In this document: piece by piece, positions 1,102 to 19,591 of the stretch
Layout: each line of letters begins with the position of its first letter
How positions within the stretch are numbered: position 1 is the first letter of the stretch
Source of the DNA: a virus
Strand: one strand, 5' to 3'
Length of the DNA stretch: 21,602 nt
IMG/VR virus record: IMGVR_UViG_3300003691_000064
Location: 1-21,602 of that record
Translations under genes and position numbers: made by a program
Notes under the pieces: model-generated
Told to the model about the DNA's origin: nothing
The model's input: only the letters and a program-made list of their open reading frames with translations
The model's database searches: none

Positions 1102-3849
1102 CTATGGTTTGGTGTATCTCAATATGTAACTAACTTCCTGAATTAATAGTCCGGTATTTTGGAGCGTTACATTGCCGTTACTTTTTTGGTAATAAAGCCC
1201 TATATTGTTTGTCCCGTCAGCTACTATCACACCTAAGAATGTCCTAGCGGCTCCTGAGTAGTATACTGAATTTTGCATTTCTAAATTTGTTGCAAGAGTG
1301 TCAATTACAAATGTTGCAGATGAAGTACCTGCCCATGAAATATTGTAGGCCCATATAGGTTTGCCATTGGGGGCCTCTTCGCCTGTTAGATATTCTGTAG
1401 CTGTTTGTTTAATCTTTGGAAGTATTACTACTATGTCTTGAAGATCTTTGTAGTCAGTATCAGTCTTTTCAAAAAACATTTTTACATTGTTTGGTGAATG
1501 TGAACCACCGCCTACCCTAAACCATTTAACTCTGTATCCCCACACTGACCCAGTATCTAACGTGGGTACTCTCATGCTATCTAACATATCATCAGAGCTT
1601 ACACTTCCTTGATACATTACTGATTTTAGATTTGGTGCTGACGAGAATAATGACTTCTTAATTAAAACATTTAGTTGGTAACGATCCGTTGCATTTGCAT
1701 ACTCACCTAGGCTATCAACAACGGTATCAGTTCCAGAATCCGTGGTAACAGTTGCGTCCTCAACAAGAACGGTGCTCGGATCTACTATTATAGAAAAATC
1801 ATTCCTCGCCTGCTTGCCGGTTAGAATTGTCCCTTCTATTTCTGAGACCTCGTGAAGTTCAAACCAAGTTCGATCACCTGCTGATATTGAACCAGTATTT
1901 GTTATTGTTGCGTCAAGAGTTAGAGCACCGCCATTATATGTGAAAGTCTGACTCGTAAAACCTGATACCCTAAAATTATTCCCTGTTCCACCACTATCTA
2001 AAAACATACTCAATCTTTGAGTAGTCCCACCATTTGTATATTCAATTATTGATTGATCGCCACTAGCAATATTAGAATGATAAGCCGAACCTCTTATGAA
2101 GTACTTCTTTCCACTTGTAGCCGAACTAGCAAAGTCTTTAATAACAGATGAAGTTGTAATATTGGAAGGTGCTACATGTGAATCAACTACCTTACTACCC
2201 GAAACATTCATAGTCCCTGTATTTGCAGCGTGAATTTGTGCCCATGGAATATCTACTTCCAAGGCTACGTTCAAACTTGCAGAAGTCGTAAAATTGGAAT
2301 CAAAGATATACCTGATTTCTGTGATAAAAACCGAGTCACCTGCCTCATAGTAAGTTGAAGCTTGAATTTCTCTGAATGGTTTAGCTCTTGAAACAACTTC
2401 CCAATCTGTAGCTAAATAAGATGCGCCACTGGTAAAGTCTATCTTCGAACGACGTAGTGAAACATCGTGGAAGATCATATCATTTTGCTTATAAACTTTT
2501 AGAGCTTCAAAATCAGGAGCGCCGCCGGCACCTCCGACTTTTCTCCAAAGGGTATCATTGAACCCAATTCCACTTGTAACAAGATCACCCGGTCCAATTA
2601 ATGTGTATAGAGTCCCGTCTTGGATAACCGATTGATCTTGCTTATATGTAGTTGCAACATCGTTATAATTATATACCTTAGTCTTTTCAACATCGACCCA
2701 ATCTGCCATGGCCTTCGAAGTAGGAACCGAAGTATCAAGTGGAGTACCTGGAACGATTGTGTCGAATTTATCAATCTTCGTCGCTTGATCTACTACAAAC
2801 ATTAATTTATTTGTTTGAGTTTCAAGAGAGTTTAAGAAGGTTCTATCTTCTGTAATTTTAAATATAGAACTAGCAGTTGAACCCGATACTTTAAAAACTG
2901 ATTCGGTGCTAGAAAGTTGACCGGCTTTCGCTTCTAAATGTAGCCCACCATTTGTAATATCTTTTTCAAGTAATAATTTGTGATCCAAATCGAGGTCATA
3001 AGCTTGTTGAATATCTTCTTCATCAATTGGGTCCCAATTCGCAATTGTAAAAATAACCGCATTAGAGGTGAAGCCAACTTTAGGTGTATAAGTTTTCAAA
3101 CCTGAGCGTACAATATCAGAAGTTAAATAAGGGGTTGATGCGGTCCAAACCTTTATGGCCAGATTAGCTTTATGATATTTGTCTACCGATAAAGTTGTTG
3201 GGAGCGAAGTATCAGCCGGAGTAACTAAAATCATATCCGTTTCGTACTTGGCAATCTTAACAGTGTTATCCGCTGCAAATTCTAAGGTCCCGTCTAATTG
3301 AATCTCAGTTGCTTTTAAGTATAGAAGATCAGGTGAAACTTTAAGCTGTAGAGTTGCTCCATCAAATACTGCAAAACGTGCATGAGTTCCAAGATCGAGG
3401 TTGTCACCTACTATATTAAATTGTCCTAGAGAACTAGCCTCCGTTGAACTTACTGCCAGAGTTATATCAGAACCTAAAGTCGCAGGAGTAATGGCATTGG
3501 GTGTGATATTGAATACACCTTGAAGACCGCCTGTTAAATTATTCCATTTGGAAGTTCCAGGGTCGAAGAATAACAAATCTGTTGTAACTGGTGCCATTGC
3601 TCCTGTTACATCTCCAAGTTCTGTCATAAAAGAGGCACCAGACATATTTGCCCAAACTGCTCCGTTATAAACTTCGAGAAGTCCAGAATCCGTATTGAAA
3701 AGGATCATCCCTTTCTTAGCATAAGGTAATGCGTCCCTCTCGACCGTTGTATAACTTTGATATACTGGTAAATTGAAGGTTGCCGACTGAGCATCTAAAA
3801 CGAAGAACAGTAAAATAGTTATAAGTAATAAATTAAAAAATGTTTTCAT
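1102..3849 (-). CDS. Tail fibre / receptor-binding protein with N-terminal signal-peptide-like sequence
   Basis: A 915-aa protein, very probably the distal fibre or receptor-binding part. The N-terminus has K2, a hydrophobic core (about residues 5-18) and AQSA at 20-23, a textbook Sec signal with cleavage after A23. Next comes a fibre module typical of tail proteins and secreted adhesins (ERDALPYAKKGMILFNTDSG, then EVYNGAVW, about 37-66). At least four short W/Y-rich beta modules follow (about 234-275, 393-437, 448-485, 494-525), with pattern Y..gd.v...Y....FTSGA...W. The last 100 residues (816-915, starting TATEYLTGEEAPNGKPIWAY and ending YILRYTKP) match the common C-terminal domain of phage fibres. 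The ATG is right after the upstream stop (TAATATG) and has a GGGG ribosome site, so the signal-like start is real. The next Met (48) would cut into the first module. No chaperone gene is evident. Confidence 0.85.
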   Translation of the reverse strand: MKTFFNLLLITILLFFVLDAQSATFNLPVYQSYTTVERDALPYAKKGMILFNTDSGLLEVYNGAVWANMSGASFMTELGDVTGAMAPVTTDLLFFDPGTSKWNNLTGGLQGVFNITPNAITPATLGSDITLAVSSTEASSLGQFNIVGDNLDLGTHARFAVFDGATLQLKVSPDLLYLKATEIQLDGTLEFAADNTVKIAKYETDMILVTPADTSLPTTLSVDKYHKANLAIKVWTASTPYLTSDIVRSGLKTYTPKVGFTSNAVIFTIANWDPIDEEDIQQAYDLDLDHKLLLEKDITNGGLHLEAKAGQLSSTESVFKVSGSTASSIFKITEDRTFLNSLETQTNKLMFVVDQATKIDKFDTIVPGTPLDTSVPTSKAMADWVDVEKTKVYNYNDVATTYKQDQSVIQDGTLYTLIGPGDLVTSGIGFNDTLWRKVGGAGGAPDFEALKVYKQNDMIFHDVSLRRSKIDFTSGASYLATDWEVVSRAKPFREIQASTYYEAGDSVFITEIRYIFDSNFTTSASLNVALEVDIPWAQIHAANTGTMNVSGSKVVDSHVAPSNITTSSVIKDFASSATSGKKYFIRGSAYHSNIASGDQSIIEYTNGGTTQRLSMFLDSGGTGNNFRVSGFTSQTFTYNGGALTLDATITNTGSISAGDRTWFELHEVSEIEGTILTGKQARNDFSIIVDPSTVLVEDATVTTDSGTDTVVDSLGEYANATDRYQLNVLIKKSLFSSAPNLKSVMYQGSVSSDDMLDSMRVPTLDTGSVWGYRVKWFRVGGGSHSPNNVKMFFEKTDTDYKDLQDIVVILPKIKQTATEYLTGEEAPNGKPIWAYNISWAGTSSATFVIDTLATNLEMQNSVYYSGAARTFLGVIVADGTNNIGLYYQKSNGNVTLQNTGLLIQEVSYILRYTKP

Positions 3850-5072: not shown

Positions 5073-7550
5073 TTACCTCGTAACATTTATACGAGGTTTA
5101 TATTTCTTCAGCTTCTTTCGTCGTTTTTTGTCTGCTAAGTTTTTAACTGACGGCCAATTGGTCGTGTGGTTAAGGACACCCTCTAATAGAAAATGATTTG
5201 GAACTAACGCCCTTACGTTTCTAGTGTATAATTTATCGTATTCTTTTTGAAGTTTTTTATTGCTATCTGCGGTCCCTGCTTTATACAAAGTCTTACCAAC
5301 ATCTATCAATCTATTTGCAGGTACGAATATCGGGAAGTTACCTACCCCAACCTTTCCTTCAGCAGCGGAAGCAACAATTTGTTCAATCATTGGGTACATA
5401 ACCCCACTTTGAAGTACACCTCTTTTCGCTATATTAAAAAGGTATTTAGTCCTGGCATCGATCTGATCTTCTGTTTTAGCATCAAAGAAAGCAGGGTTTA
5501 CCTTGTTGGAGAGGATATCCTTGAGCAATTGAGCGGCCATAAAGGTTCCAGTACCGAACATGACTGCCCCACCGATTGAACCAATAGCATTTATATTCTT
5601 CTTGGAAGTGTTTAATCCAAAGTCATGTCTATTGTTTGAAGCTCTGTTGGCAAAATGTAGAGAGGAATTCATTGTTGCGGTTGCAGTTGAGGCGAGGAAC
5701 CCTATTACATCTGCCCTAAGCCTTGCACCACTGCCACGTTTTGCATATTTATTGAGGAAAGCACTCTCTTTACCTTGAGCAATTGGGACGGACCTCTTCG
5801 CTTGCCCATGATAATAAGATTGAAGTTTCGACTGTAATTTTATAGTAGCTTCTTTTGCCTTTGCTGCAGATAAATGAGGGAATAACTCCCCTGCTTTAAA
5901 AGAATCAATTGAATCGTAGGTGATTTTCTTAGTAGCACTTGAAACTTTTTTGAGGGCCTTCAAATCGACTTCATCAATGCCGAAACTGTGAAGCTCATCA
6001 CCTACTTTTGAGGAGTCATTTATAATTTGCCTGATATTAAGTTCATTCAAACGAAACGAGGTACTCCTTGATAACTTTGTTACCTGATTAATTCCTGTAC
6101 TAGACATAAAACTATCAGTTATTCGACTCATTCTAGTTTTCTTAGAACCAAAATCGGCCATGTACCGACCATGATCGTCAGCCATAAGCCTTAATTGATC
6201 TGCGAAATTACGTTTTTCTTTACTAGTTAAGCCTTCAACCCAAGAAAACATGTTCTTTGTTAGAGCTTCGCCGTACCCAGCACCCGATGACATTTTATAA
6301 GTTAAAACTGAATGGGTAATATCATTGATCGCTGATAGAGCAGTCTTCCCTAGAAGTAACATGGAAGCTGCCATCTTGCTCCCATCAACTACTGACTGGG
6401 CACCTCGCATGAAGGCACTATCTACCTCGGCATTTCCTTCACCACGATATTGTCTCAGGGTTTTTGTAACAGCATCCTTGTCATAGGTTTGCCGTTTTCC
6501 TTTAGCGACTGATTCAGTCAGATACTTTGCAACCTTATCAAGATTCTCTTCAGCATTTACACCCATAATTTGAGCAAGGGAAATCTTACGAGCTGATCTT
6601 CTGGCAGTTGAATCAACCATCTCCATTAGATTATCACCATATCCCCAGGTTTTATTGTGCATATATTCCGCATGAGCGTCTTTAAATGGGACCTGTTGTC
6701 TTGCAAAATTCCCTTTAGACTTTACTCCTGAGATATTGAAATCGCCTTGATGCTCCCAATTATCAACCATCTGAGTTGCAATTTCTTCCAGGGAGTCCAT
6801 ATCTCCGACTTTATGTGGAACTAAGATAGATTCACCACCTTTCTTCACGGTTAAATGAAGTTGGGATTCATCTAAATAAGTCATAAGGTCTTTGATGTAA
6901 CCTTCTTTATTTTTGAATATTTTATCTTGGTCATAGGTCATCGACATAAAGAAGTTACTCTTCTTACCAATCGGCATCCCTAAATCAATAGCTTCTTTGT
7001 AAATGTAATCTTGGAATTCACGGATAACTTGAATACCTATTTTCACATTCTCAGGAAGATCTTTTATACGACCTTCCATAAAATCCGTGGCGTGTTTCAT
7101 CACAGTATCAGTATATTTGGCATCCCTAAATAAATCCTCCAGGCCGTGCTTTCTTATCTTCTCTCTGATGATGAAATCGTAATTCGATTCTCTAACAGTT
7201 TTAATAAAATCAGCGTTGTAATTGCTGAAGGTGCTCCCAAATCTATTGGTCCCGTGGACAATTGACTTGATGGCTTCAGTGATATTCATTTTACCATCAC
7301 GCTCAATGAACGCTGTTTTGGAATTTAGAACTGACATAGTTAAATCTTTAACTTTTATAGCGTCGTTCAATTCTGCAATGATATGTTGTTGTCTTTCAGT
7401 TGTAGCAGTCTTTATCGCTTCAAGAGCTTTCGCACGATTAATCATCCAATCTTCTTCAATACGATCAGAGATATCTTTTGCATAGTCGATGAGGTCTTTA
7501 TCAATATGCTTATACGCTTCAAGGAGTGCTTTATAACATTTATCTGACAT
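5073..7550 (-). CDS. Large internal virion / DNA-ejection protein (825 aa)
   Basis: This is the third of three large proteins between the tail tube and the fibres, where T7-like phages encode their core and ejection proteins (gp15, gp16). It is mostly alpha-helical by composition: a charged helical N-terminal region (1-180), a middle region with hydrophobic patches (about 390-415, MAASMLLLGKTALSAINDIT), a further hydrophobic stretch (652-680, INAIGSIGGAVMFGTGTFMAAQLLKDIL) that could span a membrane, and a very basic tail (808-825, KKRRKKLKKYKPR) suited to DNA or membrane contact. I see no lytic transglycosylase, peptidase or other catalytic motif. The ATG has TAGGA eight bases upstream and follows the 573-aa gene by seven bases. 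Role by position is fairly safe; the molecular function is unknown. Its length plus that of the 573-aa protein (1398) is close to single-chain T7 gp16 (about 1318), so it may be half of a split gp16 counterpart. Confidence 0.75.
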   Translation of the reverse strand: MSDKCYKALLEAYKHIDKDLIDYAKDISDRIEEDWMINRAKALEAIKTATTERQQHIIAELNDAIKVKDLTMSVLNSKTAFIERDGKMNITEAIKSIVHGTNRFGSTFSNYNADFIKTVRESNYDFIIREKIRKHGLEDLFRDAKYTDTVMKHATDFMEGRIKDLPENVKIGIQVIREFQDYIYKEAIDLGMPIGKKSNFFMSMTYDQDKIFKNKEGYIKDLMTYLDESQLHLTVKKGGESILVPHKVGDMDSLEEIATQMVDNWEHQGDFNISGVKSKGNFARQQVPFKDAHAEYMHNKTWGYGDNLMEMVDSTARRSARKISLAQIMGVNAEENLDKVAKYLTESVAKGKRQTYDKDAVTKTLRQYRGEGNAEVDSAFMRGAQSVVDGSKMAASMLLLGKTALSAINDITHSVLTYKMSSGAGYGEALTKNMFSWVEGLTSKEKRNFADQLRLMADDHGRYMADFGSKKTRMSRITDSFMSSTGINQVTKLSRSTSFRLNELNIRQIINDSSKVGDELHSFGIDEVDLKALKKVSSATKKITYDSIDSFKAGELFPHLSAAKAKEATIKLQSKLQSYYHGQAKRSVPIAQGKESAFLNKYAKRGSGARLRADVIGFLASTATATMNSSLHFANRASNNRHDFGLNTSKKNINAIGSIGGAVMFGTGTFMAAQLLKDILSNKVNPAFFDAKTEDQIDARTKYLFNIAKRGVLQSGVMYPMIEQIVASAAEGKVGVGNFPIFVPANRLIDVGKTLYKAGTADSNKKLQKEYDKLYTRNVRALVPNHFLLEGVLNHTTNWPSVKNLADKKRRKKLKKYKPRINVTR

Positions 7551-7557
7551 AGTTTTC

Positions 7558-9279
7558 CTATAATTTACAATTCAAATAAGCTTTGGCCATTGCCGAAACT
7601 TCTGGAACTTGATTCGCTTTATCAGAGATAACCTTCAAATCTTCCAAAAGGCTTTCTTTCAATTTCTCTGATTTTATTTGAAGGCCGTTATTTCCTTCAA
7701 GCTTTAAATCTTCCATACCGCTTTCAAGGGAAGCTTTGGAATCTTCCACTAATTCAGCAGCTAAATTATCTACTTTATTAAATTCTAAAATATTCTCAGG
7801 GATATCCAGAATATCTTTCTCAGTGATTGAGTCATTTAATTTCGAGAGGCTCCCGACAATCCCTTTTTGAAGAGATGGGTTGATCTTCCCTGAACCTGGA
7901 AAGGGTGTACTCTTTAACCCTTTGACAGCATCCTTTGATATGTGGAGATATTCACCGTCGTTATAAGATTCTTTAAAAGCGTTGAACCCTTTGGACTCCA
8001 TAAACTTTCTAAAGATATTATTATTTCCTTCGACAACATTATCAAAACCTCTGACTTCAAAAGATAAATCTTTATAACTTATCATCTCCCCGTCCATAGT
8101 TTCTAAATGTTCGATGAACCCATTATATTTATTCTTAGATAGACCATTTACTTCTTTAGAAAAGGTCTTAAGGTATGTCGAAAGTTCTTTTAAATCGACT
8201 GCCTCATCCATGTTTAAGACTTTCAATTCTTTAAGAGAGAACTCTCCAACGCTTCCCGTTTCTCCAAGAGATGTTGTTGCTCTCCTGGCTACGTTCGGAT
8301 TATCTGTTAGAGTTAGCATCCCTCTAAAACCTGTTATCATTTGGTTTTGATTCTTAAGTCCAAACTTATCACCTAAGAATGAACCGAACATCTTATCACC
8401 TTTCTTAAATTGTATCTTTTGGTAAGGTACATCTAGGGCATCCGACTTAAGAAAATGTTCCTTAGTCAAATTCTCAACGGTAGCAACTATAGGAGGTGCT
8501 TTTATTTCGGGCACTACTTCAGAAACAGGGTTTGTTTTATTTGATTCGATCAATTCTTTTGCCGCTTGAGCATCTAATTTCGATTGAATATCTTTTGAAG
8601 GGATGTATTTACCAAAGCCTTTCCTGGCAACAGCGACACCACCTCTCATAATTAAGGCACCTAACAAGTTTTCAGTTAATTCTTGACCGAAAGAAACGTC
8701 ATAATCTCCTTCGATTTCATTGTCATATAATAAATTTTCAAAAGGTGTTCTTGTAAATTGAGTAAGAGTTGTTTCAATTAATGCTCCGATGCCTTCACTT
8801 GCAATAGCGACACCTGCGATTGTTGCTATTCCTGCACCACCGGCAGCCGTTAAACTTGCAGGGGCAGCAGCAGTAAGTCCCATGCCAACACCGGCAGCTA
8901 AAGCAACACCGGCCACGTCCATCACACCACCCATGGCCCCATATCCTAGATTGGAAAGGAAGCTTTGGTCATTTGGATTAATGTGTTTTTCATCTGTATT
9001 CGCTTGAATCTGATTATCTAATAACCAAGCTTCATATTTGGTAACTGGTACTTTGGAACCGAATCTCTTTTGGCTATCTTCAGCAGATAAGAAATTCTCT
9101 TCATCCGTTATTGTTCGACCTGCTCCAAAGATTGCTCTACCTAAAGTTCCAGTTAATCCATTCCAGGCCGCATTTCTTGTAATCGACCATTGGTCAGTTT
9201 GGTACTGGAAAACCGATTGATCGAACTTAAACTTTTGGACATCAGATATTTGTTTCTGACTATCACTTAGGAATGCCAT
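7558..9279 (-). CDS. Internal virion / ejection protein with ADP-ribosyltransferase-like region (573 aa)
   Basis: I chose the ATG at 9279, which overlaps the upstream stop as TAATG; an in-frame TTG three codons earlier has no better ribosome site. Residues about 110-172 are Gly/Ala-rich and hydrophobic (GVMDVAGVALAAGVGMGLTA, then GIATIAGVAIASEGIGALI), likely membrane-inserting during ejection. Residues about 285-455 look like an ADP-ribosyltransferase fold of the kind found in phage polyvalent and ejected proteins: IQFKKGDKMFGSF where families show HGT..DF..F, LTLTDNPNVARRA (322-334) where families show YFTDNP..A..YA, and GFNAF...YNDGEYLHISKDAVKGL (431-455), where DGEY carries the usual catalytic Glu (E443). 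The first catalytic His/Arg is not obvious, so the domain may be degenerate. The C-terminal quarter is helical and acidic. Position indicates an ejected virion protein. Confidence 0.75.
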   Translation of the reverse strand: MAFLSDSQKQISDVQKFKFDQSVFQYQTDQWSITRNAAWNGLTGTLGRAIFGAGRTITDEENFLSAEDSQKRFGSKVPVTKYEAWLLDNQIQANTDEKHINPNDQSFLSNLGYGAMGGVMDVAGVALAAGVGMGLTAAAPASLTAAGGAGIATIAGVAIASEGIGALIETTLTQFTRTPFENLLYDNEIEGDYDVSFGQELTENLLGALIMRGGVAVARKGFGKYIPSKDIQSKLDAQAAKELIESNKTNPVSEVVPEIKAPPIVATVENLTKEHFLKSDALDVPYQKIQFKKGDKMFGSFLGDKFGLKNQNQMITGFRGMLTLTDNPNVARRATTSLGETGSVGEFSLKELKVLNMDEAVDLKELSTYLKTFSKEVNGLSKNKYNGFIEHLETMDGEMISYKDLSFEVRGFDNVVEGNNNIFRKFMESKGFNAFKESYNDGEYLHISKDAVKGLKSTPFPGSGKINPSLQKGIVGSLSKLNDSITEKDILDIPENILEFNKVDNLAAELVEDSKASLESGMEDLKLEGNNGLQIKSEKLKESLLEDLKVISDKANQVPEVSAMAKAYLNCKL

Positions 9280-11825
9280 TAGAACCAACCTTCGATTGTA
9301 TCAAAAATCCCTTCTTCTTTTTTCCGTTTAAGAAGTTTAGGGATAACTTGAGGTTTAATCTCAGCAGCAACCTCTTTACCTGATCGGTCGGTTGCAGTCA
9401 CAGGAATTTCACCTCCGTCCGGTGTTATTATCATAGGTGTGAAGTTACCGTTTAAATTAGGTCTAAGTTTTATAGGTAGTGTTTCGAGAGCTTTTCTTGA
9501 AGGGTTGGCACTTGACTTGAAGTTATCCGTGATAGATTTATCTAGTTTTATTTTTCCTTCGACACCTTCGAAAATATCCTCTGCATTAAATCTCTTTGCA
9601 AACTCATTCATTTGTTCGGGAGATACATGCGCCCTATCAAGGATACTTTTTCTAAATATTATAGGATTGTCACCTTCTGTAATATGGTACGACGAAAGAA
9701 CTTTGTTAATTGATTCTAGGTAAGTTTCTGAGTTTGCTTCTGCCCCTCTGGAAACTTTACCAACGACATTCGAGATGATGAGTTCTCTTATATCCAATCT
9801 GGTCATAGAAGAAACTCTGTCCATCATCGAACCTTGTATTGCCGTTTCTACATGAGCTAACTCTTTAACTAAGCCTTGATGGATAGTATCTATTTTATCA
9901 GCGTCGCCTATCAAAGTGATGTTTGCAGCCTTCCCTTGTAGATCAATCATTAAATCAGCAGCGTTTCTCTCACCTTGTGGGCTATTTAGATCCATGTGTA
10001 GGAGAGATAAGTAACCTTTCTTCATTTGAACACCCTTACGGGTCTCCATAGAGTTTACAAGGCCCTCAAAATCACCGCCGAAAGCGTTCTGTAAATCTTT
10101 TAAACTTCCGACCGCTTTGGAAATTGATTGAGAACTAACTTCTTTATTTGAAGAGGTGTGTAACCTGGACACATTATCATTGAAACTGTTAATGAAAGGT
10201 TCAATGAATCCTTTAGGCAATTCTGAACCGCCGAAAGGAAGAATCCCTCTATCAACTTTATATTTCATTAAACTATTTTTATAACTATTATACTCTTTAT
10301 TCGAGGAAGGTTTACCAATTGAACCTTGAAATTTCTCCCAAGATCGGTTTACTCCTAGATCTTTTGAAACGGCATAAGAGGCAACATCTTTCATCATCTC
10401 TTTACGTTGCTGTTGAACTTGTGCTTTTAGTTTGTTACGAACACTTAGTTCAAGTTGCGGTGATAAAGAAGAATCATACTTCTTCCCATTTCCTTTCTTA
10501 AATAGAGAATCGATCTGTGCCATCTGTTCTGCTTCGGTACCTTGAACAGTATTGAAAGCAGAAGTTTGCATATACTGTGAAGCTCTAACAGAACCACTAA
10601 GGTCATGTTTTAGTTTTGCTGCTTCATTCTCAGACATAAGGTTGTTTTCTACTAACTGATCCATTGTTCTAGTTAAGACATTAATATCCGAAACGGTGTT
10701 CATATCATTAGGGTTTGTAATATTATTAAGTAAAGCGAAGTTCATATTCCTCACCTTCTCAACAACTTCCCCAGGTAACTTATTCTTCTTCTCTTTAAAC
10801 TTTCTAAGGAGTGTATGGAAATATCCGTCCCTTTGCTCAGGAGTAAGCGCCTCTTTAACAAGGTTCTTTTGCTTAGCTGAAACATGGCCCTCTATTCCTA
10901 TAGGTGCCATATCGTATTTATTGTGTGCCTTGGTTTTCTCTTGAACCATTACACCGTTGATCTTCTTAGGTTTCCCAAGACTGATGAACTCTTTTCCATC
11001 GATTATAAGACTTCCATCTTTAGCTGCCTTGGCATCAATTCGAGCATCTTGGAGAACAGTGATAAGTTCTTCACGTTCTTCAGGTCCTAACTTATTCCAA
11101 AAGCCTCTAGCATCAATCATATCTGCGAAGTCTCTTAGGTCTCCCGTTTGGGTTGCTGTGTGAAGAGTTGACTCGACAATTGATTTTGCAATCTGTGATC
11201 TAATTGGAGTGTTTAAAGCTTCGGATTCTGAATCATTGAAATAAGAACCCTTACTAAGAGCAGCCTTTTCAGCTTGCCTCTCTAGTATTACGTTCCCTTT
11301 AGCTAGATTCATGGAGCTATCATCTATTGCTTCATTAGATAATTGCTTACCTTGAAGCTCTAGTCCTGTAACCTTAGAATCTCTCTCCACTTTGAAGCTG
11401 ACATTATCTGCAAGTATCTTATTTTGGAGATGGACACCATCAATCTTGGAATGGAATTGGCTTGTAGCTAAGTCAGTCGGCATTGAATCCAACTGACCCT
11501 TATAAACTTTGTCCATTGTAGAGGTGTAAGCTTCTGTTAGTCTAACTCGCTTTCCATTTAAAGGAACTAATCCGTCCTCTCCGACATTGGTTTGAAGCTC
11601 TTTGAAAACTTCACCGCTTTTACGAGTGATTGCTTCTTTAGCGTTATAACTCGCTTCGTCGGCTTGAATCTTCTTTTGTTCAAGGGCCAAAGCTGTGGCA
11701 ATCTTTACACCGGCTGCACCTACTTTTTGAAGTACTTGTCCAGCACCTCCAACACTTGGTGCTAATGAAGCTCGACCACTTCTTATATTTTGTCTATTTA
11801 CGTTGAAAGGTTGTAATGAAGCCAT
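9279..11825 (-). CDS. Large internal virion protein, gp15-like by position (848 aa)
   Basis: I chose the ATG at 11825 (MASLQPFN) because the end of the upstream gene supplies GAGGA five bases before it; an in-frame TTG four codons earlier is the alternative. The protein is long, hydrophilic and almost entirely helical by composition. It has an N-terminal Gly/Ala stretch (about 24-47, SVGGAGQVLQKVGAAGVKIATALAL) followed by a long charged coiled-coil-like region. There is no signal peptide, clear membrane span or catalytic motif. In T7-like phages this position, after tail tube B and gp14, encodes gp15, which with gp14 and gp16 forms the ejected DNA-translocation conduit across the envelope. 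Lengths are comparable (T7 gp15 about 747 aa). I recognise no specific family from the residues, so the assignment rests on gene order, size and composition. The stop overlaps the next start (TAATG). Confidence 0.75.
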   Translation of the reverse strand: MASLQPFNVNRQNIRSGRASLAPSVGGAGQVLQKVGAAGVKIATALALEQKKIQADEASYNAKEAITRKSGEVFKELQTNVGEDGLVPLNGKRVRLTEAYTSTMDKVYKGQLDSMPTDLATSQFHSKIDGVHLQNKILADNVSFKVERDSKVTGLELQGKQLSNEAIDDSSMNLAKGNVILERQAEKAALSKGSYFNDSESEALNTPIRSQIAKSIVESTLHTATQTGDLRDFADMIDARGFWNKLGPEEREELITVLQDARIDAKAAKDGSLIIDGKEFISLGKPKKINGVMVQEKTKAHNKYDMAPIGIEGHVSAKQKNLVKEALTPEQRDGYFHTLLRKFKEKKNKLPGEVVEKVRNMNFALLNNITNPNDMNTVSDINVLTRTMDQLVENNLMSENEAAKLKHDLSGSVRASQYMQTSAFNTVQGTEAEQMAQIDSLFKKGNGKKYDSSLSPQLELSVRNKLKAQVQQQRKEMMKDVASYAVSKDLGVNRSWEKFQGSIGKPSSNKEYNSYKNSLMKYKVDRGILPFGGSELPKGFIEPFINSFNDNVSRLHTSSNKEVSSQSISKAVGSLKDLQNAFGGDFEGLVNSMETRKGVQMKKGYLSLLHMDLNSPQGERNAADLMIDLQGKAANITLIGDADKIDTIHQGLVKELAHVETAIQGSMMDRVSSMTRLDIRELIISNVVGKVSRGAEANSETYLESINKVLSSYHITEGDNPIIFRKSILDRAHVSPEQMNEFAKRFNAEDIFEGVEGKIKLDKSITDNFKSSANPSRKALETLPIKLRPNLNGNFTPMIITPDGGEIPVTATDRSGKEVAAEIKPQVIPKLLKRKKEEGIFDTIEGWF

Positions 11826-11826
11826 T

Positions 11827-12300
11827 TTATTCCTCAAGGGCCAAGAGATCTAAGTCATAGTCTCCTGGTGTACTTTGTAGATAAGAAAAAGAATTGATTG
11901 CGGTTGATGCTGTGATATCCAATAAAGCATTATCCACAATATCTGAACTCGCTGCCTCTAGGCTTGATATTCCTCTAGCTGCTGCATCCTTTTGATAGTT
12001 AACATCTAAATCAATGTTCGATATTTCAAGAGCTGCACGACCTGATATGTGATTTAACTTTTGAAAAGTTGTTGCACTCCCACCTTGACCACGACCTGCA
12101 GACTTTTCTAGTTGTGATGCCCTCGCTTGAGCTTCATCAGAACGAACTAAGAATTTATTAGCTTCCGCTTTTCGCTGGATTTCTTCAATCTGGTATTTAC
12201 GTTCTTTACTCTCAGCTTCAAGTCTTTCTTGTTGCCTTTGAGCTTCGGTAAATTTACCTAATGCTTGTAAACCCATTGCAGCGATAATTTGCCAGGCCAT
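11827..12300 (-). CDS. Small internal virion protein, gp14-like
   Basis: A 157-aa protein with N-terminus MAWQIIAAMGLQALGKF, a short amphipathic or hydrophobic helix, followed by a Glu/Gln/Lys/Arg-rich coiled coil (about residues 18-65) and a softer acidic C-terminal part. T7 gp14 and its relatives show the same arrangement: hydrophobic N-terminal helix, heptad region, about 150-200 aa, directly after tail tubular protein B. Those proteins leave the virion first and insert in the outer membrane to begin the ejection channel. GGAGGAATAAT precedes the ATG and contains the stop of the upstream gene, so the two are coupled; its own last codons provide the ribosome site of the next gene. Function comes from position and composition. 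Confidence 0.75.
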   Translation of the reverse strand: MAWQIIAAMGLQALGKFTEAQRQQERLEAESKERKYQIEEIQRKAEANKFLVRSDEAQARASQLEKSAGRGQGGSATTFQKLNHISGRAALEISNIDLDVNYQKDAAARGISSLEAASSDIVDNALLDITASTAINSFSYLQSTPGDYDLDLLALEE

Positions 12301-17696: not shown

Positions 17697-18000
17697 TTTC
17701 CGCTTCTCCGTTTCCGTATTCTGATTTAATCAGCTCTCGCATGATATTTATTTCTTGTAAGATATCTGGCCCTGTCATTTTCATAAGCTCAAAACCGACT
17801 TCCCTCTTTCCTTCTGCTCTCATTATCTCATGTGAGTCCGAACCTGCAGGAGTCGTTGAACCGACCCCACAAGATTGTAATATTGCAATTAAAACTTCCT
17901 GACCATATTCTCCACCAAAGACTTTCTGGAACTTAACAACCATTTCCTTCTGAGTATTAAGGTGTTCAAGTTCTAATTTTTCATCATCCGACTGCTGCAT
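17683..18000 (-). CDS. Bbp19-like small head protein
   Basis: A 105-aa protein whose centre matches the Bbp19-like phage domain: KFQKVFGGEYGQEVLIAILQ (about residues 23-42; family: F.tp.G..vL..L), followed by SHEIMRAEGKREVGFELMKM (56-75; family: ....r.aG.R.vg..i.), including the conserved G-x-R. In BPP-1 and many related podoviruses this gene sits between portal and scaffold/capsid genes, exactly as here. Its role in head assembly is not established to my knowledge. The ATG lies inside the last codons of portal (17-bp overlap) with GGGAGAAG as ribosome site, and its own 3' end overlaps the scaffold start, so portal, this gene and scaffold are translationally coupled. Confidence 0.82.
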   Translation of the reverse strand: MQQSDDEKLELEHLNTQKEMVVKFQKVFGGEYGQEVLIAILQSCGVGSTTPAGSDSHEIMRAEGKREVGFELMKMTGPDILQEINIMRELIKSEYGNGEAENEEF

Positions 18001-19591
18001 TTGCTTCTCCCATCGTCTTAGCGGCTTGTGCTTGGCTATTTGCTAACTCAGCTTCCTGAGCTTCTTTTTGTATTTTTGCTCTTTGCTCTCTAATCCCTTT
18101 AACATCTTCAGGAAGGCGAATTAAGTTTCTATCCACATTCCACCTATCAAGTGAGTTAAGGAGAGATTTATCACCATCAATTAAATCCAATATGTTTGGG
18201 TCCTTTTCTATAAGGACACCATTTTCTTGGATTGCTCTAAGAAGTGATTCACCTTCGCCAGCACCTTGAGCTTTAGAAACAAGAGAGGTGTATTTAGGTA
18301 TGATATTTTTAAGGTCTTTAAGTTCTTTAGGTCTTTCGGGTATTTCATCTGAGACAAGATCAAATACTCTATCGATAACTATTCTTAAATCTTCGTTAGA
18401 GAATCTAGTGAGGAATGTCCCAATTGATCTAAATTGTTCATCTCTTCTTTGACTAACTTCCACGGCAGTCATTCTATCGCTTTCTACCAGACGTAATTTA
18501 TCGAGCATGAAAGCTTTCTCAAGTTTCTGTTGCATACGAACGATTTTATCGTTAGCAATATCTGGCCTTGTACCTGTGAAGATAGGTTTAATCTCAGCGT
18601 TTCTTCTTGTGACATTTACCGCAAGAGGTGTGAGTCTAAGAGGTCGAATCATCCCGCTATCTTGAATTTGGACAGGAGGGGTAATCGCTATTTGAGTTCC
18701 TAGTAAATCGGCTTTCACCATTTTGTTTAAAACTTTTACATCACCTAGTTTTCTAGTAAGAGGTGAACGACCAAAGGATTCCGCACTTGTTGTAAAGAAG
18801 CGAGGAAATGCCATAGGGTTAGAACTGTAACCACTTTCCTTAAGGATATGTTTTTTATCCACAAGTACATGGTATGAAACGAACTTAAATTTCACACCCT
18901 TTCTTCTTTTATTAGATTGGTTGTAAGCTGTTTTATCATTTGGTTCTATGTAATGAATTACTTCCCACTCTTTATCTTGAAGCTTTTGTTCATCAATATC
19001 TTTCTTAAAGTCAGTTGGGAAAGCATCTTCCCCGTATTCATCGACCAATTGATTATAGTTGTACGTGTATTTTATTGCGTATTTTTTTATTACCCCTTTG
19101 GCACCAGGAGTAATCATCACGTTGAATACTGGGATTGTTTCGAATACTAATTTACCATCAGCATTTTTTGAAACAACCATTGGGGCCGTACCAAGAGAAC
19201 CTAGATCCACAAGCTGTTCAGTTATTGCTTCCGTAAAATTACTATCTGATAACTTTGATAATATAATTCTAGTTACGTCCTGCAACCATTTCGAAGTCTT
19301 GGGTCTTTGGTCTAATTGATTATTTCCTGTTGACCAGATGAACCAAGGGGTTGCTGGATTAACAAGGAGTCCTGCCATAATCGAGGCAAATTCTTCAAGA
19401 GCATCTGTCGCCGAGGAATCATAGATATGTTTATTCATCCGGCTCCCGATTTGAGCTTTCGAGTTGAACATCATATCTTTTTCGGGGTAAGTCCATTTTA
19501 GAACCTCTTGCCACATTGGATGCCAACGACGGGAGAGGGCCTTCATTACCTCGATTTCTTTTATGAGTTTTTCAATTATTTCTAGTTTCAT
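17984..19591 (-). CDS. Portal protein / head-tail connector
   Basis: A 535-aa protein that fits the podoviral head-tail connector family (T7 gp8, PF12236). The N-terminus has RRWHPMWQEVLKWTYPEKDM (21-40; family: R......e...y..P), then YDSSATDALEEFASIMAGLLVNPATPWFIW (57-86; family: yDs.a..a...lAa.l...l.pp...WF.l). The central part carries the receptor-like beta region and the C-terminal third is helical, ending in an Ala/Gln-rich coiled coil (QKEAQEAELANSQAQAAKTM). Twelve copies form the ring through which the terminase pumps DNA and to which tail tubular protein A binds. Length equals T7 gp8 (about 536 aa). The ATG has AAGGGA seven bases upstream. Confidence 0.92.
   Translation of the reverse strand: MKLEIIEKLIKEIEVMKALSRRWHPMWQEVLKWTYPEKDMMFNSKAQIGSRMNKHIYDSSATDALEEFASIMAGLLVNPATPWFIWSTGNNQLDQRPKTSKWLQDVTRIILSKLSDSNFTEAITEQLVDLGSLGTAPMVVSKNADGKLVFETIPVFNVMITPGAKGVIKKYAIKYTYNYNQLVDEYGEDAFPTDFKKDIDEQKLQDKEWEVIHYIEPNDKTAYNQSNKRRKGVKFKFVSYHVLVDKKHILKESGYSSNPMAFPRFFTTSAESFGRSPLTRKLGDVKVLNKMVKADLLGTQIAITPPVQIQDSGMIRPLRLTPLAVNVTRRNAEIKPIFTGTRPDIANDKIVRMQQKLEKAFMLDKLRLVESDRMTAVEVSQRRDEQFRSIGTFLTRFSNEDLRIVIDRVFDLVSDEIPERPKELKDLKNIIPKYTSLVSKAQGAGEGESLLRAIQENGVLIEKDPNILDLIDGDKSLLNSLDRWNVDRNLIRLPEDVKGIREQRAKIQKEAQEAELANSQAQAAKTMGEANAAVG

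What the first reader, a model, noticed from the sequence alone, without database searches (positions are those of the whole stretch)
7915..8427. ADP-ribosyltransferase-like region inside an ejected internal virion protein
Residues about 285-455 of the 573-aa protein follow the order of ART domains known from phage polyvalent proteins: an F..GD.MF.SF segment, TLTDNPNVARRA (usual form YFTDNP..A..YA), then GFNAF...DGEYLHISKDAVKGL (usual form G.DGI...E.VVF.p..IK), with E443 where the catalytic glutamate lies. A protein that enters the cell with the genome could modify host proteins before any phage gene is expressed, as T4 Alt does, though here in a podovirus core. The first catalytic His/Arg is not clear, so it may be inactive.
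Basis: partly seen in the sequence, partly recalled or inferred. Interest (0 to 1): 0.62.

Follow-up and report, generated by a model that had tools for sequence, protein, structure and literature searches.

The report
Phage ejection protein, not demonstrable ADP-ribosyltransferase
The gene encodes the middle one of three proteins that a short-tailed virus of bacteria injects with its DNA; its proposed toxin-like enzyme domain cannot be told from chance, but its single cysteine, at the very end, is part of a cysteine pair shared with the neighbouring gene across the virus group that I found described in no paper I could search.

Summary
The protein is the middle of three ejection ('internal virion') proteins of an HTVC010P/phiV10-like podovirus, shown mainly by synteny. 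The ADP-ribosyltransferase (ART) reading fails its own test. No Pfam, PHROG, NCBIfam or PDB match exists; an ART-PolyVal profile scores it like shuffled sequence; a motif-chain score gives P=0.25, while true ART-PolyVal members left out of the model score 85-125 bits. The family's invariant His and Asp are Lys292 and Asn433. Two AlphaFold jobs gave no usable model, so a very divergent ART is not excluded.

The idea is nevertheless right for relatives: the same slot holds a true ART-PolyVal in Vibrio phage 1.182.O, an Alt-like ART in IMG/VR contig L130, and zeta-type kinases or a transglycosylase in others. So residues ~256-480 are probably a phage-specific insert in a swappable slot.

Following the protein outward gave a stronger result. 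In this protein and 29 relatives the only cysteine lies 2-8 residues from the C-terminus, and the adjacent ejection protein has its only cysteine at residue ~3-12. An inter-protein disulfide is the likeliest meaning (inferred).

The parts
7558..9279 (-).
   Evidence: translation; synteny; phrog_342 E=0.0023 at residues 37-174
8515..9279 (-). Residues 1-255: N-terminal ejection part, with an Ala/Gly-rich hydrophobic stretch at about residues 111-172
   Evidence: Hydropathy; phrog_342; pairwise z 4.6-6.3 with middle proteins of L092, L107, L106. A family HMM did not recover it
7840..8514 (-).
   Evidence: No homologue in any collection searched; no family match; pairwise z at most 1.9 with other middle proteins
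8278..8313 (-).
   Evidence: resemblance at chance level
8404..8406 (-). Lys292, at the place of the invariant His of ART-PolyVal
   Evidence: Hand alignment to the YHG motif of nine ART-PolyVal domains
7915..7989 (-). GFNAF...DGEYLHISKDAVKGL, residues 431-455; Asn433 at the place of the Asp in G[YF]D[GS]; E443 at 7951-7953
7567..7569 (-). Cys571, the only cysteine of the middle protein, 3 residues from the end
5073..7550 (-). Third ejection protein (825 aa, phrog_684 virion protein), immediately downstream
   Evidence: phrog_684 E=5.7e-24; homologous to L088, L004, L106, L130 and others
7536..7538 (-). Cys5, the only cysteine of the third ejection protein
   Evidence: Invariant in alignment A6
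9279..11837 (-). First large ejection protein (852 aa), no cysteine
   Evidence: Position
11827..12300 (-). T7 gp14-like small internal protein (157 aa), no cysteine
   Evidence: Position; T7_gp14 Pfam match only weak, E=2.3
17984..19591 (-). Portal (head-to-tail connector), used to place the phage
   Evidence: PF12236 E=2.4e-94; 247 phage records, best Pelagibacter phages at 28-29% identity

Best explanation
The protein is the middle of three large proteins stored in the head and ejected with the genome by an HTVC010P/phiV10-like podovirus. It is modular: an N-terminal part with a long hydrophobic stretch that probably helps form the conduit through the envelope; a central region (~256-480) in a slot whose content differs from phage to phage; and a C-terminal helix ending in the protein's only cysteine. 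In some relatives the slot holds a recognisable effector (ART-PolyVal, Alt-like ART, zeta-type kinase, transglycosylase), so the slot can carry cargo into the host; here its content has no recognisable relative and no demonstrable ART character. The single cysteine near the C-terminus and the single cysteine near the N-terminus of the next ejection protein most likely join the two end to end by a disulfide, in the virion or in the oxidising periplasm during ejection. Shown: gene order, homology of the third protein, cysteine pattern, effectors in relatives. Inferred: ejection of this protein, disulfide, function of the insert.
For: Synteny with annotated internal virion proteins and phrog_684/phrog_342 matches. 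Slot content in relatives: PF18760 3e-17 in Vibrio phage 1.182.O; PF03496 2.2e-10, phrog_3895 2e-6 and phrog_802 Alt-like 9.7e-4 in L130; Zeta_toxin 8.8e-16, 5.8e-14 and 8.5e-19 in L019, L268 and L270; SLT 2.5e-11 in BcepC6B. Cysteines: among 22 loci (21 distinct, window included) reached by gene order or by homology of the third protein without regard to cysteine, all have the pair; eight more were found by looking for the pair. Of 480 other ORFs of 390 aa or more, one has its single Cys in the last 8 residues, and it is itself a middle protein, that of phage BUCT708. The other core proteins mostly have no cysteine.
Against: The N-terminal homology of this protein is weak: a family HMM missed it. 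No proteomics and no usable structural model. A disulfide is not visible in sequence; each cysteine could instead make a homodimer or do something else. No solved structure exists for the two families.
Confidence: 0.6

Rival explanations
1. Residues ~285-455 are a very divergent or degenerate ART fold that sequence profiles cannot see, catalytically inactive or using other residues.
For: True ARTs of two different families sit in the same slot of two relatives; by eye the order of motifs and E443 in GEYLHI resemble the family.
Against: No profile match; chance-level scores; His replaced by Lys292, Asp by Asn433; no usable model.
Confidence: 0.15
2. An active ART that modifies host proteins on entry, like T4 Alt.
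For: Same context as T4 Alt in principle, and a relative (L130) does carry an Alt-like ART in this position.
Against: All of the above, and the catalytic positions are not kept.
Confidence: 0.04
3. The insert is another effector or nucleic-acid-binding domain unrelated to ARTs.
For: Relatives carry zeta kinases, ParB-like regions and a transglycosylase in the slot.
Against: No match to any family above a curated cut-off.
Confidence: 0.35
4. The insert is structural filler (helical core scaffold) without an effector function.
For: Many relatives have middle proteins without any recognisable domain.
Against: Composition of 256-480 is less Leu/Glu-rich than the helical tail 481-573.
Confidence: 0.4
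5. The conserved cysteines act separately (homodimer disulfides or another chemistry) rather than joining the two proteins.
For: Each protein has only one cysteine, so a homodimer link is possible; nothing in sequence tells partner identity.
Against: The two cysteines occur together in every pair examined, at facing ends of products of adjacent genes; Carin1, with one 2854-aa protein in that position, has none.
Confidence: 0.3

Closest known systems
Middle internal virion proteins of HTVC203P (gp46), phiVC8 (p18), phiV10 (p19), phage Tr60_Ab31 (ORF15)
   Same: Gene order, hydrophobic N-terminal part, single cysteine a few residues from the C-terminus
   Different: Only about 15-21% identity where measured; none shares the central insert of the window protein
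Vibrio phage 1.182.O NVP1182O_16 (ART-PolyVal, PF18760)
   Same: Same slot, same architecture, same terminal cysteine
   Different: It has a true ART-PolyVal domain with His and Asp; the window protein has neither profile match nor these residues
IMG/VR contig L130 middle protein (ADPrib_exo_Tox PF03496; phrog_802 Alt-like)
   Same: Same slot and terminal cysteine
   Different: Recognisable R-S-E type ART (by eye FRG, GSF, EREF)
T4 Alt and polyvalent-protein ARTs such as the Roseovarius Plymouth podovirus 1 virion RNA polymerase (PMC5512222)
   Same: Concept of an ejected protein carrying an effector
   Different: No ART shown here; an ART in an ejected podovirus protein was already predicted in 2017

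Membership tests
ART-PolyVal (PF18760, Tox-ART-HYD2 clade) | Significant match to the family profile | tested here: not met
   No match at E up to 10, whole protein and pieces; shuffles score as well
ART-PolyVal (PF18760, Tox-ART-HYD2 clade) | Active site His (strand 1), Tyr (strand 2), Asp (strand 5), as in PMC5512222 | tested here: not met
ART-PolyVal (PF18760, Tox-ART-HYD2 clade) | Split beta-sandwich ART fold | tested here: inconclusive
   AlphaFold models with pLDDT 37 and 33; not searched by fold because meaningless
R-S-E ARTs (T4 Alt, ADPrib_exo_Tox) | Profile match to PF03496, phrog_802 or phrog_3895 | tested here: not met
   None for the window protein, though L130 matches
Podovirus ejection (internal virion) proteins of the HTVC010P/phiV10 type | Place between gp14-like/first core protein and phrog_684 protein | tested here: met
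Podovirus ejection (internal virion) proteins of the HTVC010P/phiV10 type | Sequence homology of the N-terminal part | tested here: inconclusive
   phrog_342 E=0.0023, pairwise z up to 6.3, own HMM no hit
Podovirus ejection (internal virion) proteins of the HTVC010P/phiV10 type | Single near-C-terminal cysteine, with a single near-N-terminal cysteine in the next protein (a hallmark seen here, not a published criterion) | tested here: met
   C571 and C5
Podovirus ejection (internal virion) proteins of the HTVC010P/phiV10 type | Presence in the virion and ejection into the cell | not testable with these tools
   Needs proteomics or cryo-EM

The most novel reading that the evidence does not exclude
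In this broad podovirus group two of the three ejection proteins are built with one cysteine each, at facing ends, and become one covalent chain by a disulfide, while the middle one also carries a swappable effector; the redox change from periplasm to cytoplasm could then release the effector-bearing part inside the host.
Probability: 0.3. Interest if true: 0.7.

Novelty: new variant of a known kind. Interest (0 to 1): 0.42.

Why it matters
As an ART the finding would be one more predicted ejected phage effector and, here, an unproven one. What matters more is (1) a variable slot in the middle ejection protein that holds ARTs of two different families, zeta-type kinases and a transglycosylase in related phages, so that effectors entering with the genome can be looked for by position rather than by sequence; and (2) a cysteine pair kept across proteins with roughly 15-21% identity in a core that otherwise nearly excludes cysteine, which makes a question about how ejection proteins hold together directly testable with gels and Cys-to-Ser phages.

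Tried and rejected
Relatives of the protein or its central part: none in phages, IMG/VR or GTDB genomes. AlphaFold of residues 262-475 alone and of the whole protein in an alignment of nine sequences gave pLDDT 37 and 33; no fold search was run on such models. Single-sequence hhalign against the ART-PolyVal of L090 and the look-alike region of L106 was uninformative. The L106 region (GDGVIELSDN...GFDGYKYSDV) looked like an ART to the eye but also scores like many unrelated chunks, and the only locus found was L106's own contig. DUF7726 (E=0.009 on one fragment, below cut-off, 29 residues) is taken as chance. Gene fusion as a substitute for the cysteine pair in Baldr and Carin1 rests on position only; the third-protein HMM does not detect homology in those giant proteins.

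Full report
What is there.

Which phage and which protein. The window holds terminase, portal (PF12236, 2.4e-94), scaffold, capsid, tail tube proteins, a gp14-like protein and three large proteins, all on the minus strand. Portal matches place it with HTVC010P-like Pelagibacter phages, phiVC8, BPP-1 and similar podoviruses at 26-29% identity. In HTVC203P, phiVC8, a Manatee Spring phage, phiV10, Tr60_Ab31, BcepC6B and others the same order is found: gp14-like, first core protein, middle protein, third protein. The window protein is the middle one. The third one is recognisable (phrog_684, 5.7e-24; homologues). The N-terminal part of the middle one matches phrog_342 weakly, over the profile stretch that several relatives match strongly.

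Is it an ART? No family library or PDB sequence gives a match to an ART. I collected 11 ART-PolyVal domains from phages, plasmids and an IMG/VR contig, starting from a true one in a syntenic relative. With a profile of these and all filters off the segment scores 1.9 bits, beaten by 73 of 1000 shuffles. With a chain of five motif blocks it reaches 4.7 bits, P=0.25, and 415 of 2299 chunks of other phage proteins do as well; true members left out of their own model reach 85-125 bits. The block definitions are mine, but the gap is large. The family's active site is His-Tyr-Asp (PMC5512222); the residues aligned to His and Asp are Lys292 and Asn433. AlphaFold gave no usable model. The claim is therefore unsupported, not disproved.

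Why the idea was still good. The same slot in relatives does hold ARTs: PF18760 at 3e-17 in Vibrio phage 1.182.O, and an ADPrib_exo_Tox/Alt-like domain in contig L130. It also holds zeta-type kinases and a transglycosylase; many members have nothing recognisable. ARTs in ejected podovirus proteins were already predicted by Iyer et al. 2017 (PMC5512222).

The cysteine pair. Aligning the middle and third proteins of four phages showed invariant C571 and C5. Counting then showed that the middle protein has exactly one cysteine, 2-8 residues from its end, and the third protein exactly one, near residue 3-12, counting from the likely start codon. Twenty-two loci (21 distinct), the window included, were reached without regard to cysteine: L004, L005, L007, L019, L088-L097 and seven contigs found with the third-protein profile. 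All have the pair. Eight more came from a search for the pair itself and are not independent evidence. Among 480 other ORFs of 390 aa or more, one has its only cysteine in the last 8 residues, and that is the middle protein of BUCT708. In 13 annotated phages the first core protein lacks cysteine in 12, and the gp14-like protein in 10 of the 11 where it was counted. I found no mention of this in the papers searched, a limited library. A disulfide between the two ends is the simplest reading; it is inference. In Carin1, whose one giant protein occupies the position of both, there is no cysteine; in Baldr there are two, at residues 533 and 556 of 2329. This fits but rests on position only.

Verdict. 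An ejection protein with an orphan insert; ART not demonstrated; the cysteine pair and the cargo slot are the parts worth testing.

Noticed in passing
window 7567-7569 and 7536-7538; L004, L005, L007, L019, L088-L097, L105-L107, L121, L122, L130, L148, L154, L163, L267-L273: The middle ejection protein has its only cysteine 2-8 residues from the C-terminus and the next protein its only cysteine near residue 3-12, in every pair examined.
   Followed up: yes
L090 3031-4731: Vibrio phage 1.182.O middle ejection protein carries a true ART-PolyVal domain (PF18760, 3e-17) at residues 310-462; annotated only as 'coil containing protein'.
   Followed up: partly
L130 17050-18981: Middle ejection protein with an ADPrib_exo_Tox/Alt-like ART (PF03496 2.2e-10, phrog_802 9.7e-4).
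   Followed up: partly
L019 6216-9707; L268 105-3686; L270 68-3715: Middle ejection proteins of about 1160-1220 aa with a zeta-type kinase domain and, by eye, a ParB-like domain upstream of it.
   Followed up: partly
L106 15922-17763: The C-terminal half looks like an ART to the eye (GDGVIELSDN...GFDGYKYSDV...NGVILFDEG) but scores at chance level.
   Followed up: partly
L003 15422-22411; L034, L059, L072, L074; L006 15041-23605: Giant (about 2200-2330 aa where complete) proteins in the position of middle plus third protein have two conserved cysteines 22-23 residues apart (about 527/550); Carin1 gp32 (2854 aa) has none and carries PBECR5 and LPD22 domains.
   Followed up: no
L002 11529-16346: In HTVC010P the ejection-protein region is annotated as several short pieces; contigs L149 and L157 have one 1232-aa ORF that shares a sequence stretch with one of them, so the HTVC010P record may hold frameshifts.
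   Followed up: no
window 1102-3849: The 915-aa tail protein begins with a signal-peptide-like stretch (MKTFFNLLLITILLFFVLDAQSA), unusual for a tail protein; possibly a wrong start codon.
   Followed up: no
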